A DNA stretch of 64,000 nt. Source: Pyrinomonadaceae bacterium (GTDB lineage Bacteria; Acidobacteriota; Blastocatellia; Pyrinomonadales; Pyrinomonadaceae). Below, in pieces: positions 39,048 to 60,778 of the stretch (the stretch's first letter is position 1; every line of letters begins with the position of its first letter). The position numbers and the translations under genes are program-made. The notes below the pieces were generated by a model. The model did not search any database and was not told the origin of the DNA. It saw nothing but the letters and a program-made list of their open reading frames with translations. Location of the stretch: NCBI GenBank assembly GCA_014380365.1, contig JACMJZ010000007.1, positions 150,453 to 214,452 on the forward strand. The letters run 5' to 3'.

Positions 39048-40145
39048 TTACTTCGCGCGACAGCCCACGGCTTCGTCAAGCGACACAAAGCCTTCCCTCG
39101 ATATAATACGCCGCAGTCCCTCATTCACGTTCCTGGCTATCGACGGGCCTTCATAAATAAAGCCGGTATAGATTTGGATCAAACTCGCACCGGCACTGAT
39201 TTTTTCCCACGCATCCTCCGCGGTGAAGATCCCCCCGGCGCCAATCAACGGCATCATGCCCTGCGTCATACTGTAGAGCGTCGCAATTACTCTCGTGGAG
39301 CGCTGCCTGAGTGGTGAACCGCTCAAGCCTCCGGCGCCGAATGCTTCCATCGTGTCAGCCTGCGTTTGCAGGCCATCGCGCGCCGTAGTGGTGTTGGTCG
39401 CAATCAATCCGGAAACATTATTGCGTTGAGCCACAGCCACGATCTCCTGGAGTTCTAAGTCATCAAGGTCCGGCGACAGTTTGACCAGCACAGGCATATC
39501 GGCGTTGCGCGAATGCTCAATGGCTAATTCTTTGTTTCGTTTTTGCAGCGCGTGCAACAAGAAATCCAGTTGTTCGCCCGCTTGCAGCTCGCGCAGGCCG
39601 GGAGTGTTCGGCGAACTCACGTTAACAGCGATGTAGTCTGCCACCGGATAGACTAGTTCAAAACTTTGCAGGTAATCGTCAGTAGCGGCTTCGAGTGGCG
39701 TTACTTTGCTCTTCCCGATGCTAACGCCCAATACACAGGCGGGCTTGTGACCCATCACGCGCCGGGCGAATGCGGCGGCGCCTTCGTTGTTAAAGCCCGC
39801 GCGATTGATCAGTGCTTTATCAATCGGGAGTCTGAAGAGGCGAGGATGTTCGTTCCCTGGCTGCGGATGAAATGTCACAGTCCCGGCCTCAATGTGTCCG
39901 AATCCGAGCGCCGCGAGAGACTCGAGCGCAATCCCATCTTTATCGAATCCTGCCGCGAGTCCGACTGGATTCGAGAACGTCAGTCCAAAACGCCGCAGCT
40001 TCCCAAACGGATTGCGTTTGAAACGTTCGCCCAGCAGATTTGCTGTTAAATTCGGCGCGATTGCCAGCGACTTGAGCGCCAGTTGGTGGGCCGCCTCTGG
40101 AGGCAAGCGAAAGAGAAGCGGTCTCAACAATGAACGATAGAGCAT
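39048..40145 (-). CDS. pyrD: Dihydroorotate dehydrogenase (quinone), class 2
   Basis: NPVGLAAGFDKDGIALESLAALGFGHIEAGTVTFHPQPGN, INRAGFNNEG, VNVSSPNTPGLRELQ, LIGAGGIFTAEDAWEKISAGASLIQIYTGFIYEGP. Confidence 0.96.
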   Translation of the reverse strand: MLYRSLLRPLLFRLPPEAAHQLALKSLAIAPNLTANLLGERFKRNPFGKLRRFGLTFSNPVGLAAGFDKDGIALESLAALGFGHIEAGTVTFHPQPGNEHPRLFRLPIDKALINRAGFNNEGAAAFARRVMGHKPACVLGVSIGKSKVTPLEAATDDYLQSFELVYPVADYIAVNVSSPNTPGLRELQAGEQLDFLLHALQKRNKELAIEHSRNADMPVLVKLSPDLDDLELQEIVAVAQRNNVSGLIATNTTTARDGLQTQADTMEAFGAGGLSGSPLRQRSTRVIATLYSMTQGMMPLIGAGGIFTAEDAWEKISAGASLIQIYTGFIYEGPSIARNVNEGLRRIISREGFVSLDEAVGCRAK

Positions 40146-40321
40146 TTAACGGCTGTGATTTATTTGGCTTGGGTAAGTGCGAGAGCGAGACTACCAGAGG
40201 CTGTTAGATCAAGACAAGAAAGGTAATGGCCCAATTTTTCGGATACACTCCATGCAGAACTCGAAGTGCGATCATTTGGGAAGTTACGGGTCGCCACGCT
40301 CGCCGAGTTAATCGCATCCGC

Positions 40322-43300
40322 TCAAGGCGCAGTTACCGGCAACGTTGGCAAATTCGCACAAGTCTTTAGAGGCGGCACGCCGATCTTCGCGTTATGCCAC
40401 TCCTCATACTGCCGCCAGTCTTCGGCGGTTAAGTTAGGAACGAGCCGCGCGCACGCTTCCTCCAACAACGCCGCAGGACTCCAAAGCCACAACTGCGCTG
40501 ATGTTGCCACGTCCGGCTCGGAATTCCCGCGGGCTGAACCGGCGATCGCAAGGTATTTATCATCGGGACCAAACGCAATGTTTATCACACTATCAGTGGT
40601 CTGGCGGGCGACCTCCCGCCCTGTCGCAATTTCCCAGACCCGCGTTGTGTTATCGTCGCTGGCGGTCGCCAAATATCGCTGGTCACGGCTGAAGGCGACA
40701 CTGGAGACTGAACCCTCGTGTGTAAAACTCCGATACAGTGGCTTTGGCTCCTCCCATCGCCCATCCTTAACAGTCCATAAGGCAGCGGAGTTATCGCTGC
40801 TTGCAGTGGCCAGATGGTTCCCATCCGGGCTGAAGAGAATTCTATTTATTCCCTCAGTGTGCGTTCCCAAAAGGGCAACTTGTTGCCACGTTGACATCTT
40901 GCGCACGTGGACGCTCCCCCCTACGGCGAACGCCAAATAATCTCCGTTTGGGGTGAAGGCCGAAGCCGTAACATAGGAAGCGGTAAACGGCAACTCACGC
41001 CCGGCTTCAAGGTCGAACACATGAAGAGTCGCGCTTTCGTCATAGGCTAAGAGGTATTTCTCGTTTCCGCTGAATCGCACAAACTCGTAGGTTGAGTCAT
41101 CTACAAAATCGAAGCTCTTACCTTCGAGCCTCATTTCTCGCGCAGTGGCTTTCTCAATTACACGAAGCGCGACAATGCCGAGGTCGTCTTTTGACAGAAC
41201 GGCCCTGACCCAATATTTTCCGCTCGGGCTGATAGCGACGACCGGTTCAGCACTGATCGGCTCGCGGTCTGTCAATGCCCTTCCGCTGGCAGCGTCCCAC
41301 CATTGAACAAATGAGTTGCCATTGCTTTCCTCGGTTACTGCCCCCAGGTATTTCCCATTTGAGCTGAAGAACATGATGTCAAAACCGGGGTAGTCGAATA
41401 CACTTTCCCGGCCACTCTTTATGTGCCGCGCCCGGATCTGGCCTTCCTGGTTTACCCCGACTAGATAACTACCGTCGGGGCTAATCATAAATATCTGCTC
41501 CCGCCCGGTAACTTTGCTACCGAAATTCAAAAAATCCGTGCCGGCGGAAACGTCCCAAATCTGAGCGAGGTTGTCTTCACCTGCGGTGGCGACGGCGTCC
41601 CCTTCAGGGCTGAAGGCGACAGAGTTAACTCGTTTCTGATGGATCATCCGAGAAATCTCTCGTGCTGACACCCAATCCCAGACTCGAGCCGTTGCGTCTG
41701 CGCTGGCGGTCGCGAGATACCTTCCATCCGGACTGAAAGCTAAGTCGGTGACCTCTCCTTCATGAATAATGTGTGCGACCTCCCGCGCTGTCTCGATTTC
41801 CCATACTCGTGCCGTAAAGTCATCGCTCGCGGTCGCAAGATATCTAGCGTCAGGGCTAAAGACGATGCGGTTTATACGCTTGGAGTGAAACAGGCGTGCT
41901 ACCGACTTTTGCGACGAAACATCCCAAATCTGCACGTATGGCTCGGCAGCACGCGTCCCATCACGTAAGGTCGCGAGGTATTTGCCGGCAGCATCCGGGC
42001 TGAATAGAACTCCCACACCAAGATCGGTGGACAAGTTCGCTATCTGATTTTTCGTGGCGGTCTCGTAAACGCGAACAAAAGCCCTCGCCGGGACCCGCTT
42101 GTCTATCTGAGCCGGGATTGTTTCGGACACGGTTATTGCAATGCGGTCTCCGGTGGCACTGAAAACCAGTGGGTTCTCCCAAAAGGGTGACAGTGGGGAC
42201 ACATAAGTTTCAGGTGCGGCAGAGCCTGATAATGAAGGATTTGGGAAACTAGACACTAGTTTGAGCGAGGACGTCTCCCAAACGCTCACTGTGTGATCGG
42301 GATTGAAGGTTGCTACGTAGCGACTATCCGGGCTGAAGACAGGAATCGATGAGAGCTTCGCAGACAAGGGTGGGAGCTTGCGGCCAGTCTCCATCTCGAC
42401 TATCTCCCATTTCTCTTGAGCCACCTGTGCCAAATACTTCCCCTGCGGACTGAGGGACGATCTCCTCATTGCGTCATCTTTTTGCAAGATCCCCTGTCCG
42501 GCAAAGCGCAAAGAGAATTCCGTGTTGCCCGATACTTCTGGCTTGGTGTTTGTCCAGAGCTGTGCCTCGATGCCTTGGCGCACCAAACCGGACGAAGATG
42601 TAAAGTCTCCCCGGAGCGTTATCAAAGTGTTACGGTCCTTGCCAAAGGCGACGCTTTGGACAGGATGAGAAAGCGGCAGGCTGGCAATCGGTCTTGGCAG
42701 CAGAGCCAGCCCTCGACTTAGGGCTTGGTAGCCTACTTCGGAGGGCGTAATAATCATGGATTCCTGAGCCAGAAGCACGCTGTGTTTGAGTAGCCGGGCC
42801 TGTTGGTTTCTTGTGAGCTCAGCGAACGCCCCGAGTTGGCCCCCCTGAGAGATTCTTTGCGCTTCTTTTGCAAGCTTCTCCTGTTTCACTGCCTCGGCGC
42901 GTAAATCTTCGGCCTCCTTTCTGGCGATTTGCTCCTGTTCGCCTGCCGCTACCGCAATCGACCGTTGGTGTTCGGCGTTCTCGGTCTGTTTCTGTGCCTC
43001 CTCACGACGTGCTTCAGCTTGTTTCTTGGCCGAGGTCTCTTTCCCAGCGAGCTCCTCGGCAAGGGCACGCTGTCGTTCGGCTTCTTTCGTCTGTTGCTCA
43101 GCTATTTGCCGTTGTTCTTCGGCTTCTTTCCGTTGTTCTTCTGCTTCTTTCCGTTGCTCTACGGCTTCAGCCCGTGCGGCCCGTTCCAGACCAACCGCTT
43201 CCTCTGCTCTATTGCGCTGCGTTTCCGCGTCGCGCCGTGCCAACCGTTCCGAATTAACTGCCTGCTCGGCATTAGACTTCTGGTACCAGGCGTACAGAGT

Positions 43301-44482
43301 CAGCGGAAGCAAAAGGATGCCAATGGCGGCGAACATGGTGGTAGCGCCTGAAACGATAGCTGTCCGCCGGAGTTGCTTTTTCAAAGTTGCCGGCAGGTGG
43401 TTTTTGACCCAATGTTCGTTGAAAACTGTTCGGTAAATCTTATTGCGGACATTCAATACGCCGGCACTTGTGCGATGGACGACGCCCGAGAGTTTGAGGT
43501 GGGATTTAACCAGCGACTGCTCCTCGTCGCGGACGCGACCTGGTTGTCGCAGAATATCCAGGTACGTGGTCAGCACCGCAGTCGGATTCTTCGCGCGCTT
43601 TGTCAGCATGTCGCGCACGAATTGAAGATTGTTGTCCTTCTCAGCTTGCTCGCCGAAAAACGTATGCGCAACTATATCGTCCAGCTCATTTCGCTCCCAA
43701 CTACCTCGCCCGTCCTGCGCAATAGCGCGGCACAAACGCAGCGTCAGGTAGGGGTGTCCGCCCGTCCATCCCAGAATCCAACCCAACACCTCCTCTGCAT
43801 GAGGGGACGGAAGCCCCAGCCCGGCCAGTAGAGGCAGTGCTTCTTCACCGTTGAAGTCAGTTAGATCAACTCGCTCACCGATGTTGAAGGGAGTGCGCTG
43901 TGGATCGCGCATCAGGTCGCTGGGAGTAGCCACCCCGATGAGCACGAATGAGAGTCGCTGGAATTCAGGAACGTGCGCTCGCGCGTTGTGGAGGTAACGT
44001 ATCGCGGCGTAGAAGTCGTCCGTGAAACCGAGACTTAGCGTGGTATCTATTTCATCAATGCAAATGACTACCTGACCCTTAACTTCCCGCATTAGCTCCT
44101 TACGGAAGTAGTCCGTCATGCGCTGCGTGGTGCTGAGATGATTGTTCTTTTCCCACCAGGAGACTACATCTCCCTCCAGGGCGAGTTGATCCTCGATGGC
44201 TGAAAGTAATCCGAGGTGCCAGGACTCGGAAGTCACGTCGGTGCCGAGTTGCGTCAGGTCAATAATTACCGTGCGTACGCCCTCTTCGTTAAGGCGCTCT
44301 ACCGTGCGTTTCATCAGGCTCGACTTGCCCATCTGCCGCGGAGTCAGTACGTAGCTGAACGTGCCGGTACGACAGAGTGCCAGTAACTCATTGTCAGCCC
44401 TGCGGGGAATGTAGATTCCCCCGCTGGCCTGCACGTCCCCGCCCACAGCGTACATGCTTGGGTTAGCCTTAATTTCGTACAT
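40322..44482 (-). CDS. AAA-like (AAA_35/STAND-type) ATPase with TM helix, long coiled coil and WD40 beta-propeller
   Basis: YVLTPRQMGKSSLMKR P-loop, VVICIDEIDTTL; TM IVSGATTMFAAIGILLLPLTLYAWY; (K/R)EAEEQR heptads; repeated VAFSPDGRYLATASxDxTARVWD units. Confidence 0.9.
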   Translation of the reverse strand: MYEIKANPSMYAVGGDVQASGGIYIPRRADNELLALCRTGTFSYVLTPRQMGKSSLMKRTVERLNEEGVRTVIIDLTQLGTDVTSESWHLGLLSAIEDQLALEGDVVSWWEKNNHLSTTQRMTDYFRKELMREVKGQVVICIDEIDTTLSLGFTDDFYAAIRYLHNARAHVPEFQRLSFVLIGVATPSDLMRDPQRTPFNIGERVDLTDFNGEEALPLLAGLGLPSPHAEEVLGWILGWTGGHPYLTLRLCRAIAQDGRGSWERNELDDIVAHTFFGEQAEKDNNLQFVRDMLTKRAKNPTAVLTTYLDILRQPGRVRDEEQSLVKSHLKLSGVVHRTSAGVLNVRNKIYRTVFNEHWVKNHLPATLKKQLRRTAIVSGATTMFAAIGILLLPLTLYAWYQKSNAEQAVNSERLARRDAETQRNRAEEAVGLERAARAEAVEQRKEAEEQRKEAEEQRQIAEQQTKEAERQRALAEELAGKETSAKKQAEARREEAQKQTENAEHQRSIAVAAGEQEQIARKEAEDLRAEAVKQEKLAKEAQRISQGGQLGAFAELTRNQQARLLKHSVLLAQESMIITPSEVGYQALSRGLALLPRPIASLPLSHPVQSVAFGKDRNTLITLRGDFTSSSGLVRQGIEAQLWTNTKPEVSGNTEFSLRFAGQGILQKDDAMRRSSLSPQGKYLAQVAQEKWEIVEMETGRKLPPLSAKLSSIPVFSPDSRYVATFNPDHTVSVWETSSLKLVSSFPNPSLSGSAAPETYVSPLSPFWENPLVFSATGDRIAITVSETIPAQIDKRVPARAFVRVYETATKNQIANLSTDLGVGVLFSPDAAGKYLATLRDGTRAAEPYVQIWDVSSQKSVARLFHSKRINRIVFSPDARYLATASDDFTARVWEIETAREVAHIIHEGEVTDLAFSPDGRYLATASADATARVWDWVSAREISRMIHQKRVNSVAFSPEGDAVATAGEDNLAQIWDVSAGTDFLNFGSKVTGREQIFMISPDGSYLVGVNQEGQIRARHIKSGRESVFDYPGFDIMFFSSNGKYLGAVTEESNGNSFVQWWDAASGRALTDREPISAEPVVAISPSGKYWVRAVLSKDDLGIVALRVIEKATAREMRLEGKSFDFVDDSTYEFVRFSGNEKYLLAYDESATLHVFDLEAGRELPFTASYVTASAFTPNGDYLAFAVGGSVHVRKMSTWQQVALLGTHTEGINRILFSPDGNHLATASSDNSAALWTVKDGRWEEPKPLYRSFTHEGSVSSVAFSRDQRYLATASDDNTTRVWEIATGREVARQTTDSVINIAFGPDDKYLAIAGSARGNSEPDVATSAQLWLWSPAALLEEACARLVPNLTAEDWRQYEEWHNAKIGVPPLKTCANLPTLPVTAP

Positions 44483-46052
44483 TGAGTTGCTCCCGGAAGT
44501 AACTTTCATAGAGTGAACAGCGGGGTATGACCTCGTGACCGTCCTGGCGCACTAATCCGGCGCCCCGTAAGCGGAAGAAGAGCAGTTTGTCTTCACACTC
44601 GTGCTTCAGGATTACGCGGCGCAACGCCTCAACGAGTTCCGCTTTCTTGTGTAGTCGGAACAGGTGGTAACGTAAATGGTCACCGAATGGTCCACGATCG
44701 TTAGTCGCCTGGCTAAAAAGCTCGTCCGGGCTACAGCGACCGCTGGCGACCAGATAGAGCGCGCGACGCACCAGGTAAGGATGGCCGTGCAACAAAGTCA
44801 TCAGGTCATCCGCCTCTTTGTTTGTCAGTGGCGAGCTGTGGAGCTGGTTCAGCCTGGAAACCTGGTCTTTATCGAAGTCGTCTAATTCGAGGACCTCACC
44901 GACGTTGAAAGGTGACTGATTCAGGTTTTCGATCAGCTGGTAAGGTTCGGTTGAGGTTACGAGTACCAAGTCAAGATATCTGGAGAGCGCAGATGGCTGC
45001 CGACTATTATGCCAACTGCGAAGCATTCCGAAGAAATCAGAGCGAAAGTCTGCCTCGAAGATGCTATCCACCTCGTCCATCGCGAAGACGAGAGGGCCGT
45101 TCACTTCTTTCAATAGATACTTGTTTAGATAACGCGTGCATCGCACTCCGTTCGGAAGTTGCCCGCGCCAGAACTCTTCCACACGATCTTCCAGATCTAA
45201 AGCGTCCGTCAGCCAGGAGCAAAACTGCTTAAAGAAGAGGTCGCCGTCGGTCAGCATAGCTTTGTCGATCAACTGAAAGTCGAGAAACGCGACGCGCTTG
45301 CCCGCCTTTGCTGCCTGGTTGATCGTGCGCATGAGGAGGGAGCTCTTCCCCATCTGGCGAGGCGCTTTAATTGTGATTGTCACTCCCTCCCGCTTAATCG
45401 CTTCAAAGGCGATTCCGTCGGATGGGCGGCGGACGTACAAGGCTGATTCCGCGTTCATTGTCCCTTCCGGCATCTCAAGAGGGACTGGTTGCGCTGAAGG
45501 GGATGGACGGGGTAACTGCTGCGGGTCGGCCGCTTGCAAAACCTGAGATAACTGATCTTCGCCAATCGGCAGAATACTGCCGGAAATAGCTAACCTTATT
45601 TCATTGATTAAGCGCACTGTGTCGGCAGGTTCGTCCCAGAGTGCCCAGTTTAGGGAATTAAGGTAAGCGCTCAACGGATACTCGAAGGGCTCTCGATAGC
45701 CCAGTCGCACCGGCAGGATCATCGGCCCTTCCGGACCTTCTTTTCTAAGCCGGTGTGCAGTCTCGACCTCGGCTAGGACCATCTCGCTATGTACGGACCG
45801 TTCGGAAAGAAAACTGATGAGAAAGTTAGAATGGCGAAGCTCGGCCTCAATGCGTTCGGCCCATGGTGTCCCAACCGGCATCAACTGATCGATAAAGACA
45901 TCGTGCTGTGATGCCAGCGCGCGGTACACCTGCATGGCTACCGATTCATCGGGGTCGCCGCCGCGCTTATAGCTAATAAAGATTCGCCGACGTGCCTCCG
46001 CAGGCTGGGATGGTGAAGAGTCTGCACCCATCATTTCATCTTCTGAACTCAT
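44469..46052 (-). CDS. TIR domain - AAA-like (AAA_35/STAND-type) ATPase
   Basis: RRRIFISYKRGGD...LISFLSERSVHSEMVLAEVETA (TIR); ITIKAPRQMGKSSLLMRT P-loop; LVFAMDEVDSIF; stop overlaps start of downstream WD40 gene. Confidence 0.9.
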   Translation of the reverse strand: MSSEDEMMGADSSPSQPAEARRRIFISYKRGGDPDESVAMQVYRALASQHDVFIDQLMPVGTPWAERIEAELRHSNFLISFLSERSVHSEMVLAEVETAHRLRKEGPEGPMILPVRLGYREPFEYPLSAYLNSLNWALWDEPADTVRLINEIRLAISGSILPIGEDQLSQVLQAADPQQLPRPSPSAQPVPLEMPEGTMNAESALYVRRPSDGIAFEAIKREGVTITIKAPRQMGKSSLLMRTINQAAKAGKRVAFLDFQLIDKAMLTDGDLFFKQFCSWLTDALDLEDRVEEFWRGQLPNGVRCTRYLNKYLLKEVNGPLVFAMDEVDSIFEADFRSDFFGMLRSWHNSRQPSALSRYLDLVLVTSTEPYQLIENLNQSPFNVGEVLELDDFDKDQVSRLNQLHSSPLTNKEADDLMTLLHGHPYLVRRALYLVASGRCSPDELFSQATNDRGPFGDHLRYHLFRLHKKAELVEALRRVILKHECEDKLLFFRLRGAGLVRQDGHEVIPRCSLYESYFREQLNVRN

Positions 46053-46469
46053 TGTGTACCTCTCAGGGAATTGAGGTTCGCGTTGGAACAACAGCAGACG
46101 GTGAACGATAAGAAATATTTTGAGACAAGGCCGGACGAGTTAACTGATCAACAGTGGGTACTCCGGTCTATTAAGGCAAACAATACAGATGCGATTTGGA
46201 GTATACACTCAGTTTAAGAACATGCAAAAATTTGTACTCCACAGTAGCCGTTGGGCAGAAGTAGAACCCGGTCGAAAGGATGAGTTAGGAAATATGTCAA
46301 ACGGCAAAATCGAAGGTGCGACGTTTGAGGAGCCAAGACCTACGTGGATGGGTAGTCGTTTCGTCTACTCGTTCCATTTCCGGTGAATAAGATCGGGTAC
46401 TCACGATCTGTTGCGTCAACCGGGCGGAGTACTTGTCACTGATTACTCTTCTTGTTAGTATCCGGCGAA

Positions 46470-47036
46470 ATGGATTTCATCGAGAAAGCACGCATCATGG
46501 ATGGGCCGCGGATCAATCGCGCGCTCGCGCGGCTGGCCTCCGAAATCGTGGAAGAGAATCATGGCGCAGGAGATCTGTACCTCGTAGGTATTCGACGAAG
46601 AGGCGTTCCGCTCGCCGAGCGAATGGCGGATAAGATTGCGGATCTCGAAGGCGATCGGCCGCCAGTCGGAGTCGTGGACATCACACTTTATCGCGATGAC
46701 CTTTCCACAGTTGGAGCGAAGCCTATCGTTAACCGTACGGAACTGCCGGGCGACATCGAGAGCCGCAACATCGTCTTGATCGATGACGTGCTCTATACCG
46801 GCCGCACAATCCGTGCGGCATTGGATCAGTTGATTGATTTTGGTCGTCCGCGCCGCGTCCAGCTGGCGGTGCTGATTGATCGAGGCAAGGAACACCGCGA
46901 ACTTCCGATTCAAGCGGATTACATAGGCAAGTTAGTTCCGACCAAGAAGAGCGAAATCATCAAGGTGATGCTCCAGGAGTTCGACGAAGAAGAAGGGGTG
47001 GTCATTGTGGAACGGCCACCAGAAGAAACGACTTGA
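46470..47036 (+). CDS. pyrR: PyrR bifunctional regulator / uracil phosphoribosyltransferase
   Basis: [55 protein letters not shown]. Confidence 0.95.
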
Positions 47037-47082: not shown

Positions 47083-47602
47083 GTCAGTAGTCAGTGGTCT
47101 GTTGTCAGTAGTCTCCAGTTTGGTGTAGATGACTCTTGGTAAGGGACGAATACCGGGAGTCGCACTACGCTCTCAACTCAAGGAGGCAAAATGGAAAGGA
47201 CCAACTTTGAAAAACTAAGGGTATATCGATTGTCTGAGAAACTAGCAGATGAACTATGGAAGACTGTCACAGGATGGAGCTACTTTGAACGGGACACAGT
47301 TGGCAAGCAACTGGTTCGGGCTGGTGATAGTATTGGCGCAAACATAGCTGAAGGATCTGGACGTGGTACGTTTTTGGACAATCGTCGCTTCGTAAGGATG
47401 GCTAGGGGTTCGTTGAACGAAACAAAGCACTGGCTTAGAAGAGCACACAAGCGAAGTCTACTGACAGCGGCGCAGACAACCAAACTTAAGCCAATGGTCG
47501 ATGAGTTGGCACCAATGCTGAACGCTTACCTAAACTCGATCGGAGCGGTGAAATCGCAGCAGCTCGTCCAACCTGGAGTACAACGAACCACTGACTACTG
47601 AC
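47083..47602. mobile_element. Putative four-helix-bundle gene cassette bounded by perfect 16-bp inverted repeats
   Basis: GTCAGTAGTCAGTGGT (47083-47098) and exact reverse complement ACCACTGACTACTGAC (47587-47602). Confidence 0.6.
47191..47601 (+). CDS. Four-helix bundle protein (23S rRNA intervening-sequence-protein family)
   Basis: FEKLRVYRLSEKLADELW, LVRAGDSIGANIAEGSGRGT, RMARGSLNETKHWLRRAH. Confidence 0.9.
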   Translation: MERTNFEKLRVYRLSEKLADELWKTVTGWSYFERDTVGKQLVRAGDSIGANIAEGSGRGTFLDNRRFVRMARGSLNETKHWLRRAHKRSLLTAAQTTKLKPMVDELAPMLNAYLNSIGAVKSQQLVQPGVQRTTDY

Positions 47603-59759: not shown

Positions 59760-60130
59760 CATTTGCTTGACCGGCCCCGCGCCGTTCGCCGAGATAAACG
59801 GATGATGAGTTGGCATTTCGCCTAGAGGACGCTCGGCATCATGCTGTACATGTCTCTTGAACCTCTCACAGAAAGGATTGAAACCACCTCGCTGTCATGT
59901 AACGCGCAAACCGGACGAGAAAAGGATCACCCCGCAGCAAATTTGTCCTGGTACTGGTGTAGGGCCGAAGGATACGAAGCGAATAGTGATATGGAATTCT
60001 CAAGGGGAGAACATTCCGCACCAACACCGAAATGGAAATCAGTTTTAGTCCCAGGACTCAGGCGAAGAAGTGGGACATCATGGTGGAGTGGAACGACGGC
60101 TCCAAGAGCGGGTAGCAGGGCGGGCCCAGC

Positions 60131-60163
60131 TGGGAGCGTAGGCATCCTGCCTGCAATGAGCGC
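60131..60163. repeat. Dispersed repeat TGGGAGCG(C/T)AGGCATCCTGCC..., copy 2
   Basis: 32/33 identical to 29528-29560. Confidence 0.85.
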
Positions 60164-60179
60164 GCAGCGCGAAACCTCC

Positions 60180-60452
60180 CGAACACGTGCCAAGACCTCG
60201 CGTCCGCGTGCAAAGACGCCACGAACAGGTGTAAAGACGCCGCGTACACGTGCAAAGACGCCACGTACACCTGCAAAGACGCCACGTAGACGTGTAAAAA
60301 CGCCGCGTACACGTGTAAAGACGCCGCGTACACCTGCAAAGACGCCGCGTACACGTGCAAAGACGCCGCGTACACGTGCAAAACCCCCACGTACACGTGT
60401 AGAGATGCCGCGTGCACGTGCAAAAACCCCACGTACACGTGCAAAATACCGA
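60180..60452. repeat. 21-bp minisatellite, 13 units
   Basis: Consensus CGTACACGTGCAAAGACGCCG; units delimited by direct reading. Confidence 0.95.
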
Positions 60453-60555
60453 CCTTTTCCGCACAAACTCACAAAAACCCCAGTAAAAGGGCGATTAGAC
60501 ATCAGAACCTTCAGTGGCGCCGGGTGCTTGGCGGTCCTGACGTGAATTAATCTCC

Positions 60556-60592
60556 GCGCGTCCTCTGTGTTCTCTGTGTCTCTGTGGTGAAT
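60556..60592. repeat. Single arm of the CTCTGTGTTCTCTGTGTCTCTGTGGT repeat
   Basis: Matches arms of 7134-7232. Confidence 0.8.
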
Positions 60593-60778
60593 CTTTTTGG
60601 AGATTGCCCCCACTCGTCACTTTTCACTCGTCACTCCTAAGTCCCATGGTAGAATCCGCGCGTTTCTCAAACTACTCAGTGAAGCAGGGGACAGCGCTCG
60701 GGTCCCAAACTCGTCACCCGTCCCTTTCCACTCTTCACTCATCAACTTTTCACTCTTCACTTCCTTAGGAGGTCTCTC

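What the first reader, a model, noticed from the sequence alone, without database searches (positions are those of the whole stretch)
40322..46052. TIR-AAA gene overlapping an AAA-TM-coiled coil-WD40 gene: candidate STAND/TIR defence or death module
Both proteins carry the same unusual ATPase module (APRQMGKSSLLMRT / TPRQMGKSSLMKRT, xxDE(V/I)D, SPFNVGE / TPFNIGE). One is fused to an N-terminal TIR domain, the other to a TM helix, a heptad-rich linker and WD40 repeats, with stop and start overlapping by about 14 nt. The architecture suggests a WD40 sensor and TIR effector split over two related STAND-type ATPases. The putative TIR catalytic Glu aligns in SERSVHSEMVLAEVE. The pair sits between pyrD and pyrR.
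Basis: partly seen in the sequence, partly recalled or inferred. Interest (0 to 1): 0.76.

Follow-up and report, generated by a model that had tools for sequence, protein, structure and literature searches.

The report
Split membrane receptor with TIR output
Two neighbouring genes make a matched pair of related ATPases, one carrying a TIR enzyme-like domain inside the cell and one anchored in the membrane with a sensor that is probably outside, and the same pair recurs in several bacterial phyla with swapped sensors and outputs, so it looks like a mobile two-part receptor that has not been tested in the laboratory.

Summary
Window 44469-46052 (-) is TIR–AAA_35 (gene A); 40322-44482 (-) is AAA_35–TM–coiled coil–WD40 (gene B); stop and start overlap by 14 nt. 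The pair is a conserved unit. In loci from Acidobacteriota, Cyanobacteriota, Chloroflexota, Myxococcota, Calditrichota/KSB1 and Pseudomonadota, 105 of 116 A genes have B directly downstream, and A and B ATPases form two perfectly separated clades. A has interchangeable cytoplasmic outputs: TIR most often, also Ser/Thr kinase, winged-helix DNA-binding, CHAT, trypsin, cyclase. B has interchangeable sensors, usually behind a TM helix: WD40, TPR, CHASE2, FGE-sulfatase. CHASE2, a B protein ending in a peptidoglycan amidase, charge bias and cysteine depletion place the sensor outside the cytoplasm. The TIR keeps the NADase glutamate (E95). The locus was inserted recently between pyrD and pyrR (absent in 12 congeners); relatives lie on plasmids, none in the phage records. 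Defence is plausible but unproven: no defence-island signal was found and several outputs look regulatory. Closest published idea is the nSTAND2 two-gene system, which differs.

The parts
44469..46052 (-). Gene A: TIR-AAA_35 protein, 527 aa (start ATG 46052, GAGAGG upstream)
45642..45983 (-). TIR domain (PF13676, protein residues 24-137)
   Evidence: AlphaFold pLDDT about 90 over most of the domain
45768..45770 (-). Codon of Glu95, putative NADase catalytic residue
   Evidence: invariant in 25-sequence alignment A2 and 95% of 42 non-redundant TIRs; aligns with the Glu region of Cat1, TcpB/BtpA and TIR-STING
44490..45473 (-). AAA_35 domain of A (PF14516, residues 194-521)
45339..45365 (-). Walker A of A (APRQMGKSS)
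   Evidence: K conserved in 98% of 120 A proteins
45072..45077 (-). Walker B Asp-Glu of A (D326 E327)
   Evidence: 98-99% conserved
44469..44482 (-). 14-nt overlap of A stop and B start
44490..44494 (-). GGGAG, likely ribosome-binding site of B
40322..44482 (-). Gene B: AAA_35-TM-coiled coil-WD40 protein, 1386 aa (longest ORF starts at 44509)
43421..44440 (-). AAA_35 domain of B; Walker A TPRQMGKSS and Walker B IDEID intact
43301..43357 (-). Transmembrane helix of B
   Evidence: hydropathy 2.02; one continuous helix from residue 365 to 419 in the AlphaFold model
42785..43300 (-). Glu/Arg/Gln-rich heptad-like stalk after the TM helix
   Evidence: sequence; approximate limits by eye
40520..42652 (-). 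WD40/beta-propeller region of B (approximate limits)
40358..40453 (-). C-terminal tail with the only two cysteines after the TM helix (C1344, C1375; CARLVPNLT...LKTC)

Best explanation
The two genes encode a split membrane receptor. B is a single-pass membrane protein: cytoplasmic STAND-like AAA_35 ATPase, TM helix, coiled-coil stalk, and a sensor (here WD40 propellers) outside the cytoplasm. A is its soluble partner: the paralogous ATPase with a TIR domain in front. Shown here by sequence: the pairing, the two intact ATP sites, the TM helix, the TIR glutamate, and the swapping of sensors and outputs. Inferred: an extracytoplasmic event changes the B stalk, B and A ATPase domains assemble with ATP into a hetero-oligomer at the membrane, the TIR domains are brought together as in TIR-NLR resistosomes, and they consume NAD+ or make a nucleotide signal that arrests growth or kills the cell. 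Other family members use the same switch with a kinase, protease or DNA-binding output, so the general function is transmembrane signalling and the TIR form is probably its self-harm or immune branch. What is sensed is unknown.
For: Pairing: 105 of 116 A genes with enough sequence have B directly downstream on the same strand, 55 overlapping; A and B ATPases split into two clades without one exception, support 1.0; distances of A and B correlate at r = 0.93 over 91 pairs, permutation maximum 0.16. ATP sites: Walker A Lys and Walker B Asp-Glu conserved in at least 98% of 120 A and 101 B proteins. Membrane: 89 of 100 B proteins have a TM helix just after the ATPase, against a few isolated hydropathy peaks in A; net charge is higher on the N-side flank in 67 against 14; post-TM Cys 0.41% against 1.0% in the ATPase part, with 65 even and 23 odd Cys counts. 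Anchors: AAA_35-TM-CHASE2, one copy with further TMs and a C-terminal kinase (L097, L119, L158); Nostoc plasmid B = AAA_35-TM-12 WD40-Amidase_3. Outputs of A: TIR, kinase, kinase-TIR, cyclase-TIR, CHAT-TIR, trypsin-TIR, Trans_reg_C, kinase-plus-LuxR. TIR: E95 conserved and aligned to NADase TIRs. Fold: A matches plant TIR-NLR RPP1 best, then archaeal STAND-like ATPases, Avs3, CED-4; B matches ORC/Cdc6, Avs and MalT-like ATPases.
Against: No experiment. Contact between A and B is inferred from linkage and co-inheritance, which tight linkage alone could give. Some B proteins have no TM and carry cytoplasmic-type domains (L228 PAS/GAF, L075 Sigma70_r4, L107 CHAT), so the sensor side is not universal. 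WD40 propellers are usually cytoplasmic. The charge and Cys counts come from related sequences and have no cytoplasmic WD40 control. The usual Trp of TIR NADases before the Glu is Met here (SEMV..E). TM-scores to solved structures are low over the full length because domain arrangement differs.
Confidence: 0.6

Rival explanations
1. Cytoplasmic anti-phage STAND module: WD40 of B binds a phage component inside the cell, the TIR of A depletes NAD+ and the infected cell dies.
For: TIR with catalytic Glu; fold like TIR-NLR and Avs; patchy presence and recent insertion, plasmid carriage; some members carry conflict-system parts: EAD1, trypsin, CHAT, Trypco1.
Against: TM helix and CHASE2/amidase anchors put most sensors outside; no clear defence-gene enrichment in flanks; no PADLOC model; DNA-binding and kinase outputs.
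Confidence: 0.2
2. General environmental or envelope-stress signalling, not immunity: the TIR acts as an oligomerisation adaptor or mild signal source, as the DNA-binding and kinase outputs do in sister systems.
For: A group of 8 Acidobacteriota A proteins has an OmpR-type DNA-binding N-terminus (Pfam-confirmed for L041) and many have kinases; CHASE2, PAS, GAF, TPR sensors.
Against: Catalytic Glu strictly kept in the TIR; mobile, patchy distribution typical of accessory conflict genes; co-carriage with trypsin/Trypco1/EAD.
Confidence: 0.3
3. Self/non-self or cell-contact recognition in multicellular or surface-living bacteria: an outside sensor coupled to a lethal TIR.
For: Abundant in filamentous cyanobacteria, Chloroflexota and myxobacteria; periplasmic sensor with amidase in one case; published link of such domain sets with multicellular bacteria (PMC7159879).
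Against: No direct evidence; no immunity gene found beside the pair.
Confidence: 0.12

Closest known systems
nSTAND2 two-gene operon (Kaur et al. 2021, eLife 10:e70394, PMC8195603)
   Same: Mobile two-gene bacterial operon in which both proteins have a STAND-type NTPase core and one carries a variable effector.
   Different: There one NTPase is described as eroded and the common effectors are GT4 or HEPN; here both ATP sites are intact in at least 98% of sequences, effectors are TIR/kinase/DNA-binding/protease, and B is a membrane protein. No nSTAND2-like Pfam match was seen.
EACC2 systems (same paper)
   Same: Constant component with a highly variable C-terminus that can be extracellular with TM helices, including CHASE2.
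   Different: Constant part is an alpha+beta domain plus caspase, not a pair of paralogous ATPases.
TIR-NLRs (plant RPP1/ROQ1) and bacterial TIR-STAND proteins
   Same: TIR joined to a STAND-type ATPase; the AlphaFold model of A hits RPP1 first.
   Different: Sensor is on another chain and, here, behind a membrane helix; no LRR or TPR on A.
Toll-like receptors
   Same: Outside sensor, one TM helix, TIR output inside (analogy only).
   Different: TIR and TM are on different chains joined by two ATPases; no common descent is claimed.
Avs / bacterial NLR-related defence proteins
   Same: STAND-type ATPase fold (Avs3 and Avs4 among the fold hits).
   Different: Single-chain cytoplasmic sensors of phage proteins; no PADLOC match here.
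Npun2340/2341 family (Leipe et al. 2004, cited in PMC8195603)
   Same: Its name suggests two adjacent Nostoc punctiforme genes of a STAND clade; could be the same family.
   Different: Could not be checked: the 2004 paper was not read and the old gene numbers cannot be mapped.

Membership tests
Pfam AAA_35 (PF14516) | Match above the curated cut-off over the domain | tested here: met
   A 368 bits, B 110 bits, cut-off 27
STAND NTPases | P-loop and Walker B with acidic pair | tested here: met
   Conserved in at least 98% of A and B
STAND NTPases | GxP-type motif and helical plus winged-helix region C-terminal to the core | tested here: met
   GHPYL in A and B, G and P 100% conserved; models end in a helical bundle and winged-helix-like elements
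STAND NTPases | Sensor-1 arginine (hhToR) after the Walker B strand, as remembered for NB-ARC | tested here: inconclusive
   Position reads TSTEP in A and GVATP in B, no Arg; I could not confirm that it defines the whole class, so I call these STAND-like
STAND NTPases | Fold similarity to STAND proteins | tested here: met
   RPP1, CED-4, Avs3 and archaeal STAND-like ATPases for A; ORC first, Avs4 and ROQ1 lower for B
nSTAND2 two-gene system | One of the two NTPases has lost its NTP-binding motifs | tested here: not met
   Both intact
nSTAND2 two-gene system | GT4 or HEPN effector on the inactive partner | tested here: not met
   None among the pairs whose domains were scanned
TIR-domain NADases | TIR fold with catalytic Glu at the conserved helix position | tested here: met
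TIR-domain NADases | Cleavage of NAD+ | not testable with these tools
   needs an enzyme assay
Known anti-phage systems in PADLOC-DB 2.0.0 (Thoeris, Avs, CBASS-TIR and others) | Good match of both genes to a system's models | tested here: not met
   Only weak partial hits (best 5.7e-05 for A; WD40-only hit for B); NCBIfam ThcB4 31 bits against cut-off 220
Transmembrane receptor | TM helix with sensor outside and signalling part inside | tested here: inconclusive
   Strong indirect support; topology needs fusions or labelling

The most novel reading that the evidence does not exclude
A widespread, undescribed class of bacterial transmembrane receptors in which two paralogous STAND-like ATPases, one membrane-bound behind an extracytoplasmic sensor and one carrying the output, form an ATP-gated relay: a split Toll/NLR-like receptor with interchangeable ectodomains (WD40, TPR, CHASE2, FGE, amidase) and outputs (TIR, kinase, protease, DNA-binding).
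Probability: 0.42. Interest if true: 0.85.

Novelty: new variant of a known kind. Interest (0 to 1): 0.68.

Why it matters
Known bacterial STAND immune proteins sense inside the cell on one chain. A two-chain version with the sensor outside the membrane and a TIR inside would give bacteria a receptor laid out like Toll but built from NLR-type ATPases, would explain many 'AAA-like domain-containing protein' annotations in cyanobacteria and soil bacteria, and gives clear tests of how an outside signal can trigger a TIR. It also offers a natural modular receptor with exchangeable sensors and outputs.

Tried and rejected
A conserved third gene: neighbour clustering gave only single-linkage groups of kinases, WD40, TPR and CHAT proteins and Nostoc synteny, no constant partner; myxobacterial loci do have a CHAT-like/WD40 protein next to A. 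Defence-island test: 100 flanking against 100 random ORFs from the same genomes with PADLOC at 1e-15 gave at most 2 against 1 members per family, largely kinase and helicase models, so inconclusive. Sequence search of A or of the AAA_35 profile against PDB found only P-loop matches to RecA and KaiC. A-B fusion proteins: none seen, only tandem AAA_35 within B (L148, L150). Composition as a sign of foreign DNA: A 54.0%, B 55.3%, window 54.8% GC, no signal. Phage carriage: none in 50,697 phage records, one IMG/VR contig. Literature: no paper in the library holds PF14516; 'AAA_35' returned only unrelated matches. A survey of other phyla by the genome search was not possible because it needs genome handles of this phylum.

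Full report
What is there. On the minus strand of the window, between the divergent genes pyrD (39048-40145) and pyrR (46452-47036), lie two ORFs. Gene A (44469-46052) has an N-terminal TIR domain (PF13676, 5.7e-17) and an AAA_35 ATPase (PF14516, 4e-110). Gene B (40322-44482) has an AAA_35 ATPase (1.3e-31), one TM helix, a heptad-like stalk and WD40 repeats. A and B are the only PF14516 proteins of this genome.

The pair is a unit. In 148 related genomes PF14516 is found in 41 (35 above the cut-off), and strong (A-type) and weaker (B-type) matches lie side by side. With named genomes from GTDB added, 105 of 116 A genes with at least 1.5 kb downstream have B immediately downstream on the same strand, 55 of them overlapping; of the other 11, four have B close by in another order or orientation. 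In a tree of 221 ATPase domains A and B separate without one exception with support 1.0, so one old duplication founded the pair. A and B distances correlate at 0.93 over 91 pairs against a permutation maximum of 0.16. Linkage explains this too, so it shows co-inheritance, not contact.

It moves. The window's A is about 64% identical to copies in Nostoc, Anaerolineae and KSB1 but only 31-44% to most copies in its own phylum that were compared; the exception is one Pyrinomonadaceae copy (59%). In trees it nests in a mixed-phylum clade (A 0.935, B 0.988). In 12 congeneric genomes the pyrD-pyrR gap is 86 bp to 1.6 kb and holds neither gene; several hold other single accessory genes there, so this is a variable site. 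Relatives of A occur on 44 plasmids and in no phage record.

A: exchangeable outputs. In front of the A ATPase stand TIR, Ser/Thr kinase, kinase-TIR, cyclase-TIR, TIR-TIR, CHAT, CHAT-TIR, trypsin, trypsin-TIR, EAD1 or an OmpR-type DNA-binding domain; one has a kinase in front and a LuxR-type domain behind (L229). TIR is the commonest: about 69 of the 80 loci (those loci were chosen by similarity to this A). The TIR glutamate is kept in 95% of 42 non-redundant TIRs and invariant in a 25-sequence alignment; the profile aligns it with the corresponding helix of solved TIRs, many of them NADases, such as Cat1, TcpB/BtpA, AbTir and SARM1. The Trp usual before it is Met. Activity is not shown.

B: exchangeable sensors, mostly outside. 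A TM helix follows the ATPase in 89 of 100 B proteins and is essentially absent from A. The flank on the ATPase side is more positive in 67 and less in 14. After the TM helix Cys falls from 1.0% to 0.41%, and even counts outnumber odd by 65 to 23; the window's B has two, both in its tail. The strongest anchors come from relatives: CHASE2, an extracytoplasmic sensor domain, follows the TM helix in L097, L119 and L158, and L097 then crosses back to a kinase. A Nostoc plasmid B is AAA_35-TM-12 WD40-Amidase_3; since that amidase cuts peptidoglycan, WD40 repeats of this family can lie outside. Other post-TM domains are FGE-sulfatase, PD40, TPR and CarboxypepD_reg. A minority lacks the helix and has PAS/GAF, CHAT or sigma-factor-like domains, so a cytoplasmic variant exists.

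ATPases. Walker A Lys and Walker B Asp-Glu are intact in both partners. AlphaFold models (pLDDT 86 and 89) match the plant TIR-NLR RPP1 first for A and ORC/Cdc6 first for B, with archaeal STAND-like ATPases, CED-4, Avs3/4 and ROQ1 in the lists. I call them STAND-like rather than STAND members because the sensor-1 arginine I remember for NB-ARC is missing.

How it most likely works. Inferred: an outside event acts on the sensor, the stalk passes it through the membrane, B and A ATPase domains assemble with ATP, TIR domains cluster, and NAD+ is consumed or turned into a signal. General signalling is the shared role; self-harm or immunity is the likely role of the TIR form. Defence is not demonstrated: no PADLOC match, no clear defence neighbourhood, but trypsin/Trypco1, CHAT and EAD1 tie some members to the conflict systems described by Kaur and colleagues (PMC7159879, PMC8195603).

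What is known. No paper in the library mentions PF14516. The nearest published system is the nSTAND2 operon, two STAND genes of which one is inactive and carries GT4 or HEPN; it fails two tests here. The name Npun2340/2341 suggests that adjacent genes of a STAND family were noticed in Nostoc in 2004; I could not check whether they are this family, and if they are, the pair itself is not new though the membrane topology may be. I rate it a new variant of a known kind.

Noticed in passing
window 40145-46452; L183-L194: The divergent pyrD-pyrR gap is a variable site in this genus: different congeners hold an MBL-fold-like gene, an FGE-sulfatase-like gene, a DUF433-like gene, a PqqD-like gene or nothing (named by eye from the sequence).
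   Followed up: partly
window 47191-47601: A small four-helix-bundle-like gene between pyrR and pyrB; among the congeners checked only one (G012) gave a match (87% identity, partial at the end of the stretch).
   Followed up: no
L148 10085-14071, L150 10012-14004: B proteins with two AAA_35 domains in tandem before the TM helix, a possible hint at the stoichiometry of the assembly.
   Followed up: no
L065 4067-10596: One A followed by two tandem B genes of equal length.
   Followed up: no
L132, L133, L135: Myxobacterial loci: L132 and L133 run B, A, then a long CHAT-like/WD40 protein 10-17 nt after A; L135 has a WD40 fragment before A and the same third gene 4 nt after it.
   Followed up: partly
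L230 6040-12932 (Nostoc sp. ATCC 53789 plasmid pNsp_e): Trypco1 gene directly before a trypsin-TIR-AAA_35 A gene; its B partner ends in Amidase_3 and is annotated only as N-acetylmuramoyl-L-alanine amidase.
   Followed up: yes
L055 7570-13068: A B protein without TM carrying AAA_35, TIR, CHAT, an NB-ARC/NACHT-like ATPase and TPRs in one 1832-aa chain.
   Followed up: no
window 59841-60613: Overlapping ORFs on both strands over a low-complexity repeat (KTPRTRAKTPRT...), probably not genes.
   Followed up: no
L227 (IMG/VR contig): Single viral-collection contig with a TIR-AAA_35 relative at 37% identity; whether it is truly viral was not checked.
   Followed up: no
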